Origin: Streptomyces marianii | GTDB taxonomy: Bacteria; Actinomycetota; Actinomycetes; Streptomycetales; Streptomycetaceae | Direction of reading: 5' to 3' | Length of the DNA stretch: 64,000 bases | NCBI RefSeq assembly: GCF_005795905.1 | Contig: NZ_VAWE01000001.1 | Coordinates: 372,001 to 436,000 of the forward strand | Part shown: positions 14,966 to 21,799 of the stretch, piece by piece | How positions within the stretch are numbered: the stretch's first letter is position 1 | How the letters are laid out: every line of letters begins with the position of its first letter | Translations under genes and position numbers: made by a program | The notes under the pieces: model-generated | What the model saw: the letters and a program-made list of their open reading frames with translations, nothing else | Database searches by the model: none | Told to the model about the DNA's origin: nothing

Positions 14966-15528
14966 GGGGAGCCACCGCCGTACTGCCTGCCGCGACGGGG
15001 CGTCGGGTCGGTCAGCCAGAGCACCATGCCTGAATTCTATCGATCGGCCCCCTGCCCCGCCCGGGTCCGTCCCGGCGGCCGCATCGGCGGAAAGCCTTCG
15101 CACGGGGGCTCCGGCGGGGACCGCCCCCTCGAATGGTCCGCGAGCAGCCGCCCGGGCGAACAACGCTCACCGAAGCCCGGTTGACGCCCGGGGCCGCCTC
15201 GGGCCCACTTCCGACCGCCCGGCCGCCGTCCCCGCCCCGGGAGCCGGCCCCGTGGTGTCGCGGAGCGGTGCGACCGAGCGGAGAACGTCGTCTACTCGCC
15301 GGTACAAGTGGCCCAGCCACGGGCCCGGCACGCCCGCCCAGCGCCCCTTGCGCCCGGCTCTCCCCTTCGCCCGGTGCCGACGGCTGGCCGGACTCCATCG
15401 CCATGGCTGCTCCACGGTGAACTTCGGCGCCGGTCCCGGCCGGCACCCGCCGGCACCCGGTGGGCCGTACCGGATCATCGGGACAACACGGTTCGCGAAC
15501 CGCTCCGCACCGCGCACAGGAGGAGACG
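14966..15528. other. Intergenic region with a palindrome near its right end
   Basis: In this 563-bp divergent gap I see no gene. GGTTCGCGAACC (15490-15501) is a perfect 12-bp palindrome about 28 bases before the DUF2071 start, placed where an operator would lie. The half-site order (GTTC...GAAC) is opposite to a LexA box. Confidence 0.5.
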
Positions 15529-16272
15529 TTGCCCGCACCGCCCCGATTGCCCTTCCCACGGGAACTTCCCGCGCTGACCGCCGGGTTGTCCCACCAGACC
15601 TACGTACACTGGCCCTACCCGCCCGACGCGGTACGCCCGCTGCTGCCGTCCGGACTGCGGCCGGACGAGTCCGACGGCCGCGCGTGGGTGAGCCTCGTCG
15701 CCCTCGTGATGAGATCGGTGCACCCGCTGGGACTGGTGCCGCTGCCCAGGGGAACGTTCGCGCAGACCAATCTGCGGACCTACGTCAGAACGCGGGACGG
15801 GCGCAGCGGGGTGTGGTTCCTCTCCCTCGACGCCGACCACCCCCTCATGCCGGCGGCGCGGGCCTTCGGGATCCCGTACCACTGGGCGGACCTGGCCGTC
15901 CGGCGCAGTCCCGACGGGCGCGCCCTCACCTACACCGGCCGGCGCCGGGCCCGGCGCGGACGGAACCGCCCGGCCGTGCCCCCCGGCTACCGGCTGACGG
16001 TCCGTGCAGGGGCACCGGCCCGCACACCGCCGGACCTGGATCGCTGGCTCACCGCCCGGTGGTCGTCCTTCTCGCACCGGGCCGGCGTCCTCTGGGAGAC
16101 GCGCATCGAGCACCCGCCGTGGCGGCTGCGCGGTGCGGAAGTCCTGGAGCTGCGCGAGACGCTGACCGCGCACGCCGGACTCCCCTCCCCCGGGGCCCAC
16201 GCACTGGCGCACATGGCGGAGCCGATGGACCGCGTACGACTGGGTGTGGCCCGGCCGGTCGGCCGTGGCTGA
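15529..16272 (+). CDS. DUF2071 (YqjF-like) protein
   Basis: This 247-residue protein belongs to DUF2071: HQTYVHWPYPPDAVRPLLPSG at the N-terminus, GRAWVSLVALVMRSVHPLG, FAQTNLRTYVR near residue 83, and the GVWFLSLDADHPLMPAARAFG core with GIPYHWADL. The start is TTG 15529, chosen because a near-perfect AGGAGGAG sits just upstream; no ATG or GTG in frame has a comparable site. The family fold resembles acetoacetate decarboxylase-like barrels, but no activity is established. The gene is convergent with the UbiA gene. Confidence 0.8.
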   Translation: MPAPPRLPFPRELPALTAGLSHQTYVHWPYPPDAVRPLLPSGLRPDESDGRAWVSLVALVMRSVHPLGLVPLPRGTFAQTNLRTYVRTRDGRSGVWFLSLDADHPLMPAARAFGIPYHWADLAVRRSPDGRALTYTGRRRARRGRNRPAVPPGYRLTVRAGAPARTPPDLDRWLTARWSSFSHRAGVLWETRIEHPPWRLRGAEVLELRETLTAHAGLPSPGAHALAHMAEPMDRVRLGVARPVGRG

Positions 16273-16327: not shown

Positions 16328-17218
16328 TCAGCCGACGGAGGCGGTCAGCAGCACCAGATGCGCCACGTCGGCTGCGGCGATGCCCATGGTGGCGAGGAAC
16401 GGGAGACGGGCGTCGGCGTCACGGACGGGCCGCAGCAGGGCCAGCGCGCAGAGCAGCACGGTCATCGCGAGGACCGCCCAGCCCTGGCGGGTGACCGGTC
16501 CGTCGGGCGCCACCAGCAGGACCAGCGACGAGGCGAGCACCAGCAGGGCCGCGACACATACCGACCGCCGCCGGCCGAGGCGTTGCGGCAGCCCGTGGAC
16601 GCCGGTGCGCAGGTCGTGGTCGATGTCCGGCAGGACGTTGGCGAAGTGCGCGCCCGTGCCGAGCAGTCCGGCGGCCGCCATGAGCCACAGGGGCGGCCAG
16701 GGCCCACCGGGCAGCGCGAGGGTGACGAACGCCGGGAGCAGCCCGAACGCCAACGCGTACGGCAGCCACGACAGAACGGTGCGCTTGAGGCGGAGGTTGT
16801 ACGACCAGGCCGCCGCCACCGCCACCGCATGGACGCACCCGGCCACCGGCCCGCACGCCGCCGACAGGACGACGCACAGGGCCAGGGCCGCGATCGCCGC
16901 TCCGGCCACGACGCCCGGCAGGGCCTCTCCGGTGACCAGCGGCTTGTCCCGGCGGCCGGACGCACGGTCCCGGCCCATGTCGGCCCGGTCGTTGCACCAC
17001 CCGATCGACAGCTGGCCCGCGGCGACCGCGCCCACGGTGAGCGCTCCGCCGGCCGGACCACGTCCTCCCACCGCGGCGGCGAGCGCGGCCGTGAGACCGG
17101 TGACGACTGCCGCCGGCAGCAGGTGACACGCCTTCAGCAGACCGACGGTCGACGGGCGGACGGAGTCGAACGGCGCTGCGTGGGCCCCGTCGGAGACGGT
17201 GGTGGCACTGAACTTCAC
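16328..17218 (-). CDS. UbiA-family prenyltransferase
   Basis: This 296-residue protein has about eight hydrophobic helices and both UbiA signature loops: NDRADMGRD (residues 76-84) and DIDHD (198-202), which bind Mg2+ and prenyl diphosphate. A GRRDKPLVTGE segment follows the first loop as in other members. It should transfer an isoprenoid chain to an aromatic acceptor at the membrane. It is divergent from the type III PKS operon by 76 bp, and the grouping matches the agqABCD cluster of Actinoplanes missouriensis, where AgqD prenylates an alkylquinol. The start is GTG 17218, six bases after a TAGCGT box, so the mRNA is probably leaderless. Confidence 0.85.
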   Translation of the reverse strand: MKFSATTVSDGAHAAPFDSVRPSTVGLLKACHLLPAAVVTGLTAALAAAVGGRGPAGGALTVGAVAAGQLSIGWCNDRADMGRDRASGRRDKPLVTGEALPGVVAGAAIAALALCVVLSAACGPVAGCVHAVAVAAAWSYNLRLKRTVLSWLPYALAFGLLPAFVTLALPGGPWPPLWLMAAAGLLGTGAHFANVLPDIDHDLRTGVHGLPQRLGRRRSVCVAALLVLASSLVLLVAPDGPVTRQGWAVLAMTVLLCALALLRPVRDADARLPFLATMGIAAADVAHLVLLTASVG

Positions 17219-17224
17219 ATCCCC

Positions 17225-17288
17225 ACGCTAGGTCACGACGCGCCCGATGCGACCGTTTCATGACGTTGTGTCAGCAGACTTCTATGTT
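17225..17288. promoter_or_regulatory. Back-to-back -10 boxes for UbiA gene and PKS operon
   Basis: The 76-bp gap has TAGCGT on the reverse strand (17230-17225) and TATGTT on the forward strand (17283-17288). Each hexamer ends six bases before the respective start codon, so both transcripts should begin at or next to the first codon. No shared operator is obvious. Confidence 0.55.
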
Positions 17289-17294
17289 GGGGCG

Positions 17295-18395
17295 ATGACC
17301 CGCGTCCTGGCCGTGAGCGCCGTGTTCCCGCCCCATCGCCACCCGCAGGCGGAGATCGCGGAGGAGCTGGCCCGCCGGCTGCCGCCCGCGGCGGATCCCG
17401 GACTGCTGCGGCGCGTGCACGCGTCCGTCGGGGTCGAGGCCCGGCATCTCGCGCTGCCGCTGGACCGCTACGGCCGCCTCGACGGCTTCGGCCAGTGCAA
17501 CGACATCTATCTGGAGCTGGCGCGGGACCTCGGGACGCGGGCCGTGCGAGCCGCCGTCGACGAGGCGGGAGTCGCCCCCGAGGAGGTCGACGTGATCGTG
17601 TCGACCTCCGTCACGGGCATCGCGGCACCGTCGCTGGACGCCCGCCTGGCCACCGCGGCCGGACTGCGCCCCGACGTACGGCGCGTGCCCCTCTTCGGAC
17701 TCGGCTGCGCCGGGGGCGCGGCGGGCACGGCGCGCCTCCACGACCAGCTCGCCGGCCGCCCCGGGGACGTGGGACTGCTGCTGTCCGTGGAACTCTGCTC
17801 GCTCACCCTGCAGTCCGCGGACACGTCGATGGCCAATCTGGTCTCAGGGGCGCTCTTCGGCGACGGGGCAGCGGCGCTGGTGGCGGTCGGCACCGAACAC
17901 CCCCGGCACGCGGTCCGCCCCGGTGGAGGCACCGGCGGGCACCCGTACGCAGGCCGGCCGGGCCCGGTGGTCGTCGACTGCCGCAGCCGTCTCCACCCGG
18001 GCACGGAACACCTCCTCGGCTGGCACGTCGGCGAGTGGGGCCTCCGGCCCGTGCTCGGCAGCGAACTGCCCGACGTGGTCAGGCTCCACGTGGGTGAGGA
18101 GATCGCGTCCTTCCTCGCCGAGCACGACCTCAAACCGCAGGACGTGGCGGCCTGGGTCTGCCACCCGGGTGGCCCGAAGGTCCTCGACGTGCTCGCCGAC
18201 GTTCTCGGGCTGCCCGAGGAGGCGCTTTCGCCGAGCCGACGGTCGCTCGCCCGGGCCGGGAACCTGTCCTCCGCCTCCGTGCTGCACGTCCTGAGGGACA
18301 CCCTCGTCGACGGCCCGCCCGAACCGGGCGCCCCCGGGCTGATGCTGGCCTTCGGCCCCGGGTTCTCCTCCGAACTCGTCCTGCTGCGCTGGTGA
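17295..18395 (+). CDS. Type III polyketide synthase (alkylresorcinol/alkylpyrone synthase-like)
   Basis: This 366-residue chalcone synthase-superfamily enzyme carries the full catalytic triad: Cys138 (FGLGCAGG), His290 (VCHPGGPKVL) and Asn323 (AGNLSSAS). Such enzymes use acyl-CoA or acyl-ACP starters and malonyl-type extenders to build resorcinols, pyrones or quinols. The next two genes encode an ICMT-like methyltransferase and a flavin hydroxylase, the srsABC order of S. griseus, and the divergent UbiA gene adds the fourth agq-type function. So an alkylresorcinol-type core is the best prediction. The ATG at 17295 is six bases after TATGTT, implying a leaderless mRNA; upstream frame extension is not needed. 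Confidence 0.9.
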   Translation: MTRVLAVSAVFPPHRHPQAEIAEELARRLPPAADPGLLRRVHASVGVEARHLALPLDRYGRLDGFGQCNDIYLELARDLGTRAVRAAVDEAGVAPEEVDVIVSTSVTGIAAPSLDARLATAAGLRPDVRRVPLFGLGCAGGAAGTARLHDQLAGRPGDVGLLLSVELCSLTLQSADTSMANLVSGALFGDGAAALVAVGTEHPRHAVRPGGGTGGHPYAGRPGPVVVDCRSRLHPGTEHLLGWHVGEWGLRPVLGSELPDVVRLHVGEEIASFLAEHDLKPQDVAAWVCHPGGPKVLDVLADVLGLPEEALSPSRRSLARAGNLSSASVLHVLRDTLVDGPPEPGAPGLMLAFGPGFSSELVLLRW

Positions 18396-18402
18396 CGCCC
18401 CG

Positions 18403-18960
18403 ATGAGCACCCACACGCCCACCGTGTTCCTCGTACTCGTCCTGCTGGTCGCCGTGGAACGGCTCGCCGAACTCGTCGTGGCCCGCCGCAACACGGTCTG
18501 GAGCCGAACGCACGGCGGCGTCGAGCACGGCCGCGGCCACTACCCCGCCATGGTCGTCCTGCACACCGTGCTGCTGGCCGGCTGCGCCGTCGAACCCTGG
18601 GCCGCGGACCGCCCCTTCGTGCCCGTGCTCGGCTGGACCATGCTGGCGCTGACCGCCGCGGCCCAGGCGCTGCGCTGGTGGTGCATCGTCACCCTGGGCC
18701 CGCGGTGGAACACCCGCGTCATCGTCGTACCGGGCCTGCCGCTCGTCGCCTCCGGGCCGTACCGGTGGCTCCGGCACCCCAACTACGCCGCGGTCGTGCT
18801 GGAGGGGCTCGCACTGCCCCTGGTGCACACGGCGTGGGTGACGGCCCTGGCGTTCACCGTGCTCAACCTGGCACTGCTCGGGGTCCGCATCCGATGCGAG
18901 GAGTCGGCCCTGACCGGGGTGCCGGGGACCGCCGGCCGTACCGCGAACGCGGTCCGGTGA
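18403..18960 (+). CDS. Isoprenylcysteine carboxyl methyltransferase-like O-methyltransferase
   Basis: This 185-residue protein has four or five membrane helices and ends with the ICMT/PEMT motif: GPYRWLRHPNYAAVVLEGLALPL at about residues 112-134, the SAM-binding region. SrsB and AgqB, its likely counterparts, methylate a phenolic hydroxyl of the polyketide product. The start lies seven bases after the PKS stop, and its stop overlaps the next gene start (GTGA), so the three are one translation-coupled operon. It is shorter than eukaryotic ICMT, as usual for bacterial relatives. Confidence 0.85.
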   Translation: MSTHTPTVFLVLVLLVAVERLAELVVARRNTVWSRTHGGVEHGRGHYPAMVVLHTVLLAGCAVEPWAADRPFVPVLGWTMLALTAAAQALRWWCIVTLGPRWNTRVIVVPGLPLVASGPYRWLRHPNYAAVVLEGLALPLVHTAWVTALAFTVLNLALLGVRIRCEESALTGVPGTAGRTANAVR

Positions 18961-19982
18961 TCGATCTGCTGGTCGCCGGCGGCGGCCCGGCGGGGCTGGC
19001 CACAGCCATCCACGGTGCGCTGGCCGGGTTCGAGGTCGTCGTCGCGGAGCCGCGGCCCACACCGGTCGACAAGGCGTGCGGTGAGGGGCTGATGCCGGGT
19101 GCCGTACGGGCGCTCGCGGGACTCGGGGTCGCCGTCGAAGGGGCTCGGTTCACCGGCATCCGGTACACCGACGGACTCGGCGCCCGCGCGGCGGAGGCGC
19201 GCTTCCGTGCCGGACACGGCCTCGGGGTGCGCCGCACGGATCTTCAGTCGGCGCTCGCGGCGCGCGCCGCGGAGCTGGGTGTGCGGTTCGTGGCACGCCG
19301 ACTCGGCGAAGTGCGCCAGGACGGCCGGCAGGTGACGGCGGACGGGCTGACGGCGCGGTACCTCGTCGCCGCCGACGGGCTGCACTCCCCCGTCCGCCGC
19401 GCCCTCGGACTGGGCGCGCGGCCCGCTTCCGCCCGGGCGGCGCGCTACGGGCTGCGCCGCCACTACGCCGTCGCCCCGTGGAGCGACCTGGTCGAGGTCC
19501 ACTGGGCGGAACGCTCCGAGGCGTATGTGACGCCCCTCGCCGCCGGACTCGTCGGTGTCGCCGTGCTCACCGCCGACCGCGCCCCGTTCGACGCCCAGCT
19601 GGCACGCTTCCCGGCCCTGGGCGAGCGGCTGTGCTCGGCCGCGGCGACCCCGGTGCGCGGTGCCGGGCCGCTGCGCCAGGACGTGCGTACACGGGTGGCC
19701 GGCCGGGTGCTGCTCGTGGGGGACGCCGCGGGTTACGTCGACGCGCTCACCGGCGAGGGGCTGACGCTCGCACTGACCGCGGCCGGTGAACTGGTCCGCT
19801 GTGTACGGTCGGGCCGGCCCCGGGAGTACGAGCGCGCCTGGCGGCGGCTGTCCCGCCCGTACCGGCTGCTGACCGGGTGTCTGCTGCGCGCCCGTGAGAA
19901 TCCGTACCTCGCTCCTCGGGTCGTGCCGCTCGCGGCCCGGCTGCCGCGCGTGTTCCGGGAGGGCGTCAACCTCCTGGCCTGA
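18957..19982 (+). CDS. FAD-dependent monooxygenase (SrsC/AgqC-like hydroxylase)
   Basis: This 341-residue class A flavoprotein has the Rossmann motif DLLVAGGGPAGLATAIH at the N-terminus, a DG-like motif (YLVAADGLHSPVRRAL) near residue 135, and GDAAGYVDALTGEGL near residue 250 for FAD ribose binding. In the srs and agq clusters the equivalent enzyme hydroxylates the aromatic ring to give a hydroquinone. The chosen start is GTG 18957, which overlaps the methyltransferase stop by four bases. Length and CGEGLMPGAV resemble geranylgeranyl-reductase/hydroxylase-type members, so reduction of a prenyl chain is an alternative activity. Confidence 0.85.
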   Translation: MIDLLVAGGGPAGLATAIHGALAGFEVVVAEPRPTPVDKACGEGLMPGAVRALAGLGVAVEGARFTGIRYTDGLGARAAEARFRAGHGLGVRRTDLQSALAARAAELGVRFVARRLGEVRQDGRQVTADGLTARYLVAADGLHSPVRRALGLGARPASARAARYGLRRHYAVAPWSDLVEVHWAERSEAYVTPLAAGLVGVAVLTADRAPFDAQLARFPALGERLCSAAATPVRGAGPLRQDVRTRVAGRVLLVGDAAGYVDALTGEGLTLALTAAGELVRCVRSGRPREYERAWRRLSRPYRLLTGCLLRARENPYLAPRVVPLAARLPRVFREGVNLLA

Positions 19983-20064: not shown

Positions 20065-20925
20065 TCACCCGGTGTGCGCGGTGTGCACGACCGCCACCGG
20101 GCAGGCCGCGGTGTGGAGGACCTCGGAACTCACCGAGCCCAGCAGCAGCCTGCGCAGTCCGGAACGGCCGTGGGAGCCGACGACCAGGAGGACCGCCCCA
20201 CGCGAGGACTCCGCCAGCAGGGTCGCCGCACGGAGCCGTTCCGCGTGCAGCCTCACCGGCACCCCCGGGTAACGGTCACGGCGCTTGTCCGCCTCCTCTT
20301 GCAGGGCCGCCCGGACCGCCTCGTCGAGGACGTCGAAGTCGGGTGCGGCCATCCCGGGCCCGGTCGGGGTCTCGCCGAGGTGGAAGCTGCCGTGCACGAG
20401 TTCGAGGCTCGCCCCGCGCAGCGCGGCCTCGGCGAAGGCGGCGTCCAGGGCGTGCGACGAGATGCCGGAGGTGTCGGCGACGTCCACCCCGGCCACGACG
20501 CGCTTCTCCGGGTCCGGTGGTGTGTCACCAGGTCGGACGACGATGACGGGGCCTGCGGCGTGGGTGGCGACCTGCCAGCTCACGGAGCCGAGCGGAAGAC
20601 GGGCGAAGCCACCGCTGCCCCGGTGGCCGACGACCGTCCAAGACGCCCGCGCGGACCGCTCCACCAGCACGGCGGAGGCACGGCCGGTGACCGCCTCCGC
20701 CGTCACTGCCACGCCGGGGAACTCGGTGCGGACCAGCCTCTCCAGGGGCGCCACGGCCTCGGCGCCCGGGACCGGGGTGCCGTGGTGCTCGGCGACGTGC
20801 AGGAGGTGGAGCGGCACCTCGTGCAGGTCGGCCTGTTCGGCGGCGCAGCGCACCACGTACTCCTGACCGCCCTCGTCGACGCCGGCCAGTACCGGCCCCC
20901 TCGCTGACGTGGTGTCGTCCACCAT
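20065..20925 (-). CDS. Two-domain universal stress protein (UspA family)
   Basis: This 286-residue protein consists of two tandem Usp domains. Each carries the ATP-binding G-x2-G-x9-G-S/T pattern: GHRGSGGFARLPLGSVSWQV near residue 115, and GSHGRSGLRRLLLGSVSSEV near residue 260, followed by the usual PVIVV or PVAVV strand. Such tandem Usp proteins in Streptomyces bind ATP and respond to stress or hypoxia. The start is ATG 20925 with AGGGAG upstream. It is convergent with the PKS operon and appears monocistronic. Confidence 0.88.
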   Translation of the reverse strand: MVDDTTSARGPVLAGVDEGGQEYVVRCAAEQADLHEVPLHLLHVAEHHGTPVPGAEAVAPLERLVRTEFPGVAVTAEAVTGRASAVLVERSARASWTVVGHRGSGGFARLPLGSVSWQVATHAAGPVIVVRPGDTPPDPEKRVVAGVDVADTSGISSHALDAAFAEAALRGASLELVHGSFHLGETPTGPGMAAPDFDVLDEAVRAALQEEADKRRDRYPGVPVRLHAERLRAATLLAESSRGAVLLVVGSHGRSGLRRLLLGSVSSEVLHTAACPVAVVHTAHTG

Positions 20926-21799
20926 GAGTGCTCCCTGCTCCGGTCTCCGCGGTCTCGCTCCAGGGTGCGTCCGCGCGGGCGGCGGCGCAGCACGCGTTTC
21001 CACCACCCGGCCCAGTCCGGGCGGGATCCCGAGGGACGGCGGTGTCAGGAGTGGACGGGCGGACAGCCGTCCCGTCCGAGGAGGCCGTCGGGATGTTCTC
21101 CGGGGGGCAGCGTGGGAACGGGTCTGCCCGCGAGGTGGGCACGGGCTTGGGCGAGGTCGTAGATCAGGAGGCGCTGCGAGGAAAGAGGCTTGGCTGGCCG
21201 GTGGCGGAGGGCGGGGGCGTCGGGTCGCCGCCACGTGGCGACGGGGACGCGGTCCTGCTCGGCGATGTCGGCTCATTGAGCACAGGCCGGTTGCGGGAGA
21301 TCACCGTGGGGTTCACCGTGGGGTTCCTCGAGCGGCTGGCGGGTCGCGGGCGGGGCCTTGTAGCCTGGTGGCACTTCTCACGCTGGCGTTCCGCCGGCAC
21401 GGATGTTGGTCAAGAGCCGGCGGTGTGCCGGGGCACTCCGAGTGAGTGGCTCTCCGCCGGCCCTTTCATCAGTTCCTTCGTCCGTCTGCGGACTTCGCAC
21501 GGACTGCGGAGCCTGACTACCTTGACGCCCGATCGGCTGTCTCGGACACCTGTGGTACTCGCGGACGGCGGTGCGTCGGGGGCAGGTCCCGACATCCTCA
21601 AACCGCACAGGGGGCTTCCTCACCAACCGAGGCCTGCCCGCGCGCGCCGTCAGCACCCCCGCCGCGCCCGCACCGCACCGCACCGCCCACGAGCGGGAGC
21701 CGGGCGAGACCACCCCGACCGTGCGACATCCCGTGAGTTCCTCTGAGCCCCGCTGAGTGCTTGCCCCGGTGGCCAGGGTGTTCTGTCTCCTTGGGGTGT
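20926..21799. other. Degenerate non-coding region
   Basis: About 0.9 kb with no supported gene and GC content that falls visibly below the neighbours around 21.4-21.6 kb. It contains a 12-bp tandem duplication (ACCGTGGGGTTC twice, about 21303-21327). Next to the broken integrase it is best read as decayed mobile-element DNA. Confidence 0.45.

What the first reader, a model, noticed from the sequence alone, without database searches (positions are those of the whole stretch)
16328..19982. Compact cluster for a prenylated, methylated phenolic or quinone lipid
Seen: UbiA prenyltransferase (both Asp motifs) divergent from a type III PKS with intact Cys138-His290-Asn323, an ICMT-like methyltransferase and an FAD hydroxylase, the last two joined by a GTGA overlap. 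Known: srsABC of S. griseus makes alkylresorcinols and their quinones, and agqABCD of Actinoplanes missouriensis adds a UbiA step to give prenylated methoxyhydroquinones. Inference: this cluster makes a related meroterpenoid lipid whose acyl starter and prenyl length are not predictable here. The FAD enzyme also resembles prenyl reductases, so a reduced prenyl chain is possible.
Basis: partly seen in the sequence, partly recalled or inferred. Interest (0 to 1): 0.8.

Follow-up and report, generated by a model that had tools for sequence, protein, structure and literature searches.

The report
Four-gene quinone-lipid cluster with prenyltransferase
This Streptomyces DNA carries the known three-gene set for making a quinone lipid plus a fourth, facing gene for attaching a prenyl chain; the fourth gene sits beside nearly every Streptomyces copy of the set that was checked, and the papers read here say little about it.

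Summary
A UbiA gene faces a type III PKS, an ICMT-type methyltransferase and an FAD enzyme, with the catalytic residues and the GTGA overlap as described. The three-gene operon is srs/pkq type: 58.6, 72.8 and 62.1% identical to the Streptomyces griseus locus that I read as srsABC. The agq cluster of Actinoplanes missouriensis shares only the UbiA enzyme (AgqD, 48%). Its PKS is 34% identical, and its methyltransferase and oxidase belong to other families. The window is therefore an srs operon plus an AgqD-type prenyltransferase.

This is not rare. UbiA stood beside 111 of 114 Streptomyces loci with PKS, ICMT and FAD, and 0 of 13 loci without FAD. S. griseus has it, and a published primer places it very probably beside sco7671. 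UbiA diverges in step with the PKS and keeps both Asp motifs. The one mycobacterial-type locus with the full trio lacks it. Main texts on the three-gene quinone operon that I could search do not name it; one other paper notes it.

Most likely mechanism: alkylresorcylic core, methylation, hydroxylation to an alkyl-methoxyhydroquinone, then prenylation by UbiA. The last step is inferred from AgqD; no chemistry was tested. Verdict: a new member of a known kind, with a neglected fourth enzyme.

The parts
16328..17218 (-). UbiA-type membrane prenyltransferase (AgqD-like), 296 aa
   Evidence: PF01040 89.3 bits; 48% identical to AgqD over 216 aa, 53% to S. griseus UbiA over 210 aa; Asp motifs kept throughout the family; UbiA fold, best PDB hits 4od5, 4tq3, 7bpu
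17219..17294 (.). 76-bp divergent intergenic region, candidate shared promoter; CTATG box on the PKS side, CACGCTA box on the UbiA side
   Evidence: CTATG in 23 of 25, CACGCTA in 20 of 25 and CGCGCCCG in 18 of 25 loci of the window's clade; relatedness alone explains part of this; no sigma-70 consensus hit; role inferred
17295..18395 (+). Type III polyketide synthase, 366 aa (SrsA/PkqA/Pks11 group); Cys138-His290-Asn323
   Evidence: Best PDB hit Pks11, 352.5 bits; 58.6% identical to the S. griseus PKS; trees. An upstream in-frame ATG at 17247 is less likely (alignment)
18403..18960 (+). ICMT-type membrane methyltransferase, 185 aa (SrsB-like)
   Evidence: PF04140 99.6 bits; 72.8% identical to S. 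griseus over 162 aa
18957..19982 (+). FAD-dependent aromatic hydroxylase, 341 aa (SrsC-like), GTGA overlap with the ICMT gene
   Evidence: PF01494 58.7 bits; 62.1% identical to S. griseus over 338 aa; PHBH/halogenase fold, pLDDT 84.4

Best explanation
This is an srs/pkq-type phenolic-lipid operon with an AgqD-type prenyltransferase facing it. The PKS extends a long acyl starter to an alkylresorcylic/alkylresorcinol core. The ICMT-type enzyme O-methylates it. The FAD enzyme hydroxylates it to an alkyl-methoxyhydroquinone, which can oxidise to the quinone. The membrane UbiA enzyme then attaches a short prenyl group, probably O-linked, to the hydroquinone. Shown here: gene content, intact catalytic motifs, orthology to the S. 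griseus locus, homology of UbiA to AgqD, conserved linkage and co-divergence. Inferred: every chemical step in this organism, the prenyl donor, and the O- rather than C-linkage.
For: Trio identities to S. griseus of 58.6, 72.8 and 62.1%. UbiA present in 111 of 114 Streptomyces loci with PKS, ICMT and FAD and in 0 of 13 without FAD; two of the three exceptions (L090, L144) are cut by a contig end just upstream. Named set: 51 of 53 Streptomyces loci, both exceptions with under 250 bases upstream (counted from the printed table). PKS-UbiA distance correlation 0.845, against 0.860 for PKS-FAD and at most 0.112 in any shuffle (n=150). Asp motifs kept wherever letters are present, bar one residue in one sequence. 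AgqD, 48% identical, is reported to O-prenylate alkyl-methoxyhydroquinone (PMC3227686, passage), which is what the srs/pkq chemistry would supply. The same UbiA family sits beside two unrelated methyltransferase/oxidase pairs (srs and agq), which points to their shared intermediate as its substrate. Streptomyces MNU77 makes 5-methoxy-2-methyl-3-alkyl quinones and hydroquinones and has a homologous operon (PMC9927152, sections 8 and 9).
Against: No product has been measured. MNU77 spores were reported to hold unprenylated quinones (the section says nothing of a search for prenylated masses, and whether MNU77 has the UbiA gene was not checked). Other loci with the trio do without UbiA: 8 of the 47 trio-bearing loci in the second set and, among Streptomyces, L146; so prenylation is not needed for the quinone. 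The FAD/UbiA association rests on few independent evolutionary events: of 4 independent pairs, UbiA goes the same way in about 2, the other way in none, and does not differ in about 2; median p 0.5. The window's PKS clade carries Trp248 (25 of 25 against 0 of 125 elsewhere), so its product may differ from SrsA's.
Confidence: 0.66

Rival explanations
1. The three-gene operon makes an unprenylated polyketide quinone electron carrier, as in mycobacteria, and the neighbouring UbiA acts on something else or only under other conditions.
For: Unprenylated quinones are the reported MNU77 products (PMC9927152, section 9). A locus of a mycobacterial-type genome (L178, so called because its genus code holds an 79% relative of Pks11), Alpinimonas (L249), two alphaproteobacteria (L252, L257) and one Micromonosporaceae locus (L297) have PKS, ICMT and FAD without UbiA.
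Against: In Streptomyces UbiA is linked as tightly as the other genes and diverges with them; its nearest studied homologue, AgqD, works in a type III PKS pathway.
Confidence: 0.22
2. The PKS makes mainly methylated alkyl-alpha-pyrones (Pks11-like); ICMT methylates the pyrone, and the cluster's product is a pyrone lipid.
For: Best solved structure is Pks11, named an alpha-pyrone synthase, and Pks11 falls inside the same PKS family. ICMT without FAD occurs in 7 of 127 loci.
Against: The window PKS is closer to the S. griseus PKS (60.7% on the alignment) than to Pks11 (50.0%). A conserved hydroxylase has no evident role on a pyrone. The Trp243 site, which I take to be the one used in PMC9927152 to argue for resorcinol, is Trp here but also in Pks11, so it does not decide.
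Confidence: 0.08
3. The FAD enzyme reduces the prenyl chain (geranylgeranyl-reductase type) instead of hydroxylating the ring, giving a dihydro-prenyl lipid as in agq.
Confidence: 0.07

Closest known systems
srsABC of Streptomyces griseus (alkylresorcinol/alkylquinone operon); read here in strain NCTC13033 as L246
   Same: Same gene order PKS-ICMT-FAD with 58.6, 72.8 and 62.1% identity, and the same divergent UbiA next to it (53%).
   Different: Described as three genes in the passages I could read. The window's PKS is in a separate Streptomyces clade with Trp248.
pkqABC polyketide-quinone operon of Mycobacterium smegmatis and Streptomyces sp. MNU77
   Same: Homologous PKS, methyltransferase and oxidoreductase by description (PMC9927152, passages and sections 8-9); same PKS family as Pks11 and its close relatives.
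   Different: The one mycobacterial-type locus with PKS, ICMT and FAD read here (L178) has no UbiA within its 8 kb. The M. smegmatis and MNU77 loci themselves were not read.
agqABCD of Actinoplanes missouriensis (alkyl-O-dihydrogeranyl-methoxyhydroquinones)
   Same: UbiA enzyme AgqD is the same family as the window's (48%); the predicted acceptor, an alkyl-methoxyhydroquinone, is the same.
   Different: PKS only 34% identical, methyltransferase class I instead of ICMT, oxidase acyl-CoA-dehydrogenase-like instead of FAD class A.
los cluster of Micromonospora endolithica (loseolamycins)
   Same: UbiA, a methyltransferase and a type III PKS are neighbours (PMC7587189, gene table passage).
   Different: Its third neighbour is annotated acyl-CoA dehydrogenase, so agq-like. 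Only losA was given a new promoter there, and the products described are alkylresorcinols without prenyl (part 1 of 4 of the text).
sco7669-7671 of Streptomyces coelicolor
   Different: The S. coelicolor sequence itself was not fetched; no product is known (PMC4573997, passages).

Membership tests
srs/pkq phenolic-lipid (polyketide quinone) operon | SrsA-group type III PKS with intact Cys-His-Asn | tested here: met
   58.6% identity to S. griseus PKS; one family in the tree; triad kept in 150 of 150
srs/pkq phenolic-lipid (polyketide quinone) operon | ICMT-type methyltransferase directly downstream | tested here: met
   PF04140, 72.8% identity
srs/pkq phenolic-lipid (polyketide quinone) operon | FAD-dependent hydroxylase of the SrsC type | tested here: met
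   62.1% identity, GTGA overlap
srs/pkq phenolic-lipid (polyketide quinone) operon | Product is an alkylresorcinol-derived quinone | not testable with these tools
   Needs chemistry
agq prenylated methoxyhydroquinone cluster | AgqD-type UbiA prenyltransferase | tested here: met
   48% identity over 216 aa; both Asp motifs; HMM from window-type UbiA hits AgqD at 2.4e-78
agq prenylated methoxyhydroquinone cluster | AgqA-type PKS | tested here: not met
   34.3% identity; AgqA's best solved relative is Pks18, the window's is Pks11
agq prenylated methoxyhydroquinone cluster | Class I SAM methyltransferase and acyl-CoA-dehydrogenase-type oxidase | tested here: not met
   PF08241 and PF02770 in L293; PF04140 and PF01494 in the window
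THN synthase (RppA) | PKS groups with THN synthase | tested here: not met
   145.5 bits to 1u0m (THN synthase by recall; PDB name is putative polyketide synthase) against 352.5 to Pks11; 1u0m was set as outgroup, so that tree alone does not test it
Housekeeping UbiA enzymes (COX10/CtaB, MqnP and others) | UbiA groups with the genome's own housekeeping UbiA proteins | tested here: not met
   At most 36% identity over short stretches to the 5 other UbiA proteins of this genome that pass the Pfam cut-off; tree places the window with AgqD and PKS-linked UbiA; the outgroup branches are long; names CtaB and MqnP are my reading
Geranylgeranyl reductase family (FAD enzyme) | Passes the TIGR02032 cut-off | tested here: not met
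   103.3 bits against 158.8
Geranylgeranyl reductase family (FAD enzyme) | Fold closer to reductases than to hydroxylases | tested here: inconclusive

The most novel reading that the evidence does not exclude
The natural end product of srs/pkq operons in Streptomyces is not the plain polyketide quinone but a prenylated one: UbiA caps the hydroquinone, perhaps as a redox-locked or storage form of the spore electron carrier. The three-gene reading of this widespread Streptomyces system would then be incomplete.
Probability: 0.42. Interest if true: 0.7.

Novelty: new member of a known kind. Interest (0 to 1): 0.42.

Why it matters
Polyketide quinones have been proposed as a second respiratory carrier in dormant Streptomyces and mycobacteria (PMC9927152, abstract). 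If a conserved prenyltransferase belongs to the Streptomyces pathway, then the compounds measured so far may be intermediates and the true end product unknown. The srs and agq families would be two routes, with non-homologous methyltransferases and oxidases, that converge on the same prenylation step. One gene deletion in a laboratory Streptomyces with lipid mass spectrometry tests it.

Tried and rejected
Rejected: (1) The window is an agq cluster. Only UbiA matches. (2) THN synthase or housekeeping UbiA. (3) A larger cluster. Of 20 refetched relatives, DUF2071 is found in 3 (in one of them on the other side of the block), USP in 2, the kinase in 1 and a transporter relative in 1, while the four genes are found in 20. 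(4) A reduced prenyl chain through the FAD enzyme; not excluded, but unsupported. (5) A sigma-70 or terminator consensus: none found.

Led nowhere: no PDB sequence match for UbiA or ICMT at 1e-3. The plasmid search gave 89 records, the best a Streptomyces at 55.6%. The first attempt to reach Micromonosporaceae went to the wrong family: f19 proved to be Jiangella-like. The Awakawa 2011, Funabashi 2008 and Anand 2015 papers are not held, so what they say of the neighbouring UbiA is unknown.

Against my reading: the phylogenetically independent test of FAD-UbiA linkage is not significant; the plain Fisher test (2.9e-15) ignores relatedness. In the tree the AgqA and 1u0m branches are long and their join is unsafe. 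The agq locus rests on one contig length that I recall, and only 5 of 44 first-look candidates of that genome were scored, so it may hold other PKS genes. Rows not counted: one search matches weaker than about 6e-68 (a second PKS family near 38% identity) were not fetched. Of the matches listed, 30 came as loci and 25 more were fetched; the rest were not.
Full report
What is there. The window holds four intact genes in the order UbiA (16328-17218, minus), PKS (17295-18395, plus), ICMT-type methyltransferase (18403-18960, plus) and FAD enzyme (18957-19982, plus). UbiA and PKS face away from each other across 76 bases; the last two overlap by GTGA. Pfam names all four. PKS Cys138, His290 and Asn323 are kept in 150 of 150 four-gene loci. 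None of the four genes has a TTA codon, and third-position GC is 88-94%. The genome is 9.01 Mb. The nearest UbiA relatives are Streptomyces proteins (94% in Streptomyces sp. NPDC049887, 88% in S. wuyuanensis).

Limits of the cluster. In 20 of 20 refetched relatives (19 of the window's PKS clade, 1 of its sister) the four genes stay together. The window's flanking genes (DUF2071 protein, kinase, universal stress protein) are seen in three, one and two of them. Both outer neighbours converge on the block, so I take it as four genes.

Which family. Among solved structures the PKS is nearest to Pks11 (352.5 bits), then CylI (177.6) and the putative PKS 1u0m (145.5), which I take from memory to be a THN synthase. 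The one scan of named genomes brought in Streptomyces griseus NCTC13033 (L246). I take its locus to be srsABC, because its gene content matches the published description; the strain is not the published NBRC 13350. Window identities to it are 58.6% (PKS), 72.8% (ICMT), 62.1% (FAD) and 53.3% over 210 residues (UbiA). In the tree the PKS lies in one large family with the S. griseus PKS and Pks11. In one search (FastTree) it lies in a separate Streptomyces clade of 25 rows (local support 100). That clade has Trp at position 248 in 25 of 25 rows, against 0 of 125 other four-gene loci.

Comparison with agq. A Micromonosporaceae genome whose single contig is 8,773,466 bases long matches the Actinoplanes missouriensis length that I recall. 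One PKS match is listed for it at E up to 1e-12, with 5 of 44 first-look candidates scored. Around that PKS lie an acyl-CoA-dehydrogenase-type protein, a class I methyltransferase and a UbiA protein. This is the same set as in the gene table of the los cluster of Micromonospora endolithica (PMC7587189, passage). The window's UbiA is 48% identical to this AgqD over 216 residues, and the S. griseus UbiA 51% over 219. The PKS proteins are 34% identical and AgqA's best solved relative is Pks18. So agq and srs-type clusters share the prenyltransferase family but not the methyltransferase or oxidase. AgqD is reported to O-prenylate alkyl-methoxyhydroquinone (PMC3227686, passage; PMC4044012, passage on O-prenylation of a small polyketide). 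Hydroquinones of that kind are the pathway intermediates reported for MNU77 (PMC9927152, section 9).

How general. Of 295 Streptomyces genomes, 198 had a PKS match at 1e-40. I examined 127 loci, the window included, down to about 6e-68. 111 have UbiA, ICMT and FAD; 3 have ICMT and FAD without UbiA; 7 have ICMT alone; 6 have none. Of the three without UbiA, L090 and L144 are cut by a contig end just upstream; L146 is a true exception within its 8 kb. UbiA was never seen without FAD (0 of 13). UbiA is on the opposite strand in 101 of 111. In the named scan (77 loci) 51 of 53 Streptomyces loci have UbiA, and the other two (L200, L247) have under 250 bases upstream (counted from the printed table, the species filed as Kitasatospora papulosa included). 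Of the other 24 loci of that scan, 5 have UbiA. In the second set (50 loci, some of them Streptomyces from the class search), 39 have all four genes, 8 have ICMT and FAD without UbiA, 1 has ICMT alone and 2 have none. L178 (mycobacterial-type by its kinship to Pks11), Alpinimonas, two alphaproteobacteria and one Micromonosporaceae locus have PKS, ICMT and FAD without UbiA. The acidobacterial and planctomycete relatives show no UbiA either.

S. coelicolor by an indirect route. In all 7 it lies inside UbiA and, on the other strand, encodes part of SIGWCND, the first Asp motif. So the gene that faces sco7671 is very probably the same UbiA; the sequence itself was not fetched.

What papers say. 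PMC9927152 (abstract, sections 8 and 9, passages) describes the Streptomyces operon as three genes; its main text holds neither 'UbiA' nor 'prenyl'. The main text of PMC4573997 (passages) holds no 'prenyl', but its Fig. 1, which I cannot see, draws the flanking genes with putative functions. PMC8779670 (passages) notes a UbiA gene beside an srs-like set in Gephyromycinifex, within an angucycline proposal. PMC7093587 (passages) lists, in the table rows shown, agq-like clusters in two sponge Streptomyces and alkylresorcinol clusters in two others; one of the latter, ADI96-02, also has UbiA (L215). The searches (listings) brought up no other paper that I found to treat the link; most listed papers, the two among them, were not opened. 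The original Awakawa, Funabashi and Anand papers are not held, so I cannot say that they do not mention it.

Mechanism. Steps 1-3 (acyl starter plus malonyl or methylmalonyl units to an alkylresorcylic core; O-methylation by the ICMT enzyme; ring hydroxylation by the FAD enzyme) rest on orthology to srs/pkq and on published chemistry. Step 4 (prenylation) rests on homology to AgqD, on conserved linkage and on the shared acceptor. Donor length, O- or C-linkage and any reduction of the chain are open. The FAD enzyme scores below the GG-reductase cut-off. By fold halogenases match best, and hydroxylases and a GG-reductase-like protein about equally.

Promoter region. In the window's clade a CTATG box lies within 22 bases of the PKS start in 23 of 25 loci, and CACGCTA lies on the UbiA side in 20 of 25. 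The boxes look like two -10 elements close to both start codons, which would mean short or absent leaders and a shared control region. Close relatedness weakens the count, and no experiment supports it.

Verdict. The window is an ordinary member of a widespread Streptomyces four-gene set. The interest lies in the set: a conserved prenyltransferase that the three-gene texts seen here leave out.

Noticed in passing
window 17219-17294: Candidate mirror-image -10 boxes (CTATGTTGGGGCGATG towards the PKS, CTAGCGTGGGGATGTG towards UbiA) close to both start codons, suggesting nearly leaderless divergent transcripts; boxes recur in 23 and 20 of 25 clade loci.
   Followed up: partly
window 17295-18395, residue 248: Trp248 in the PKS marks the window's clade (25 of 25) and is absent from 125 other four-gene PKS proteins; it lies five residues after Trp243, which I take to be the site discussed for resorcinol formation.
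   Followed up: partly
L135, L141, L149, L150, L151, L152, L155: Streptomyces loci with the PKS and ICMT methyltransferase but neither FAD nor UbiA: possibly methylated-pyrone pathways.
   Followed up: no
L131 (1264-3495): A Streptomyces locus with UbiA on the same strand as the PKS has a second, weaker FAD-family reading frame upstream.
   Followed up: no
L252, L257: Alphaproteobacterial relatives carry the PKS with ICMT downstream and the FAD gene upstream, without UbiA.
   Followed up: no
window 15460-16272 and 20065-21276: Convergent neighbours, a DUF2071 protein and a two-domain universal stress protein, are not part of the block.
   Followed up: yes
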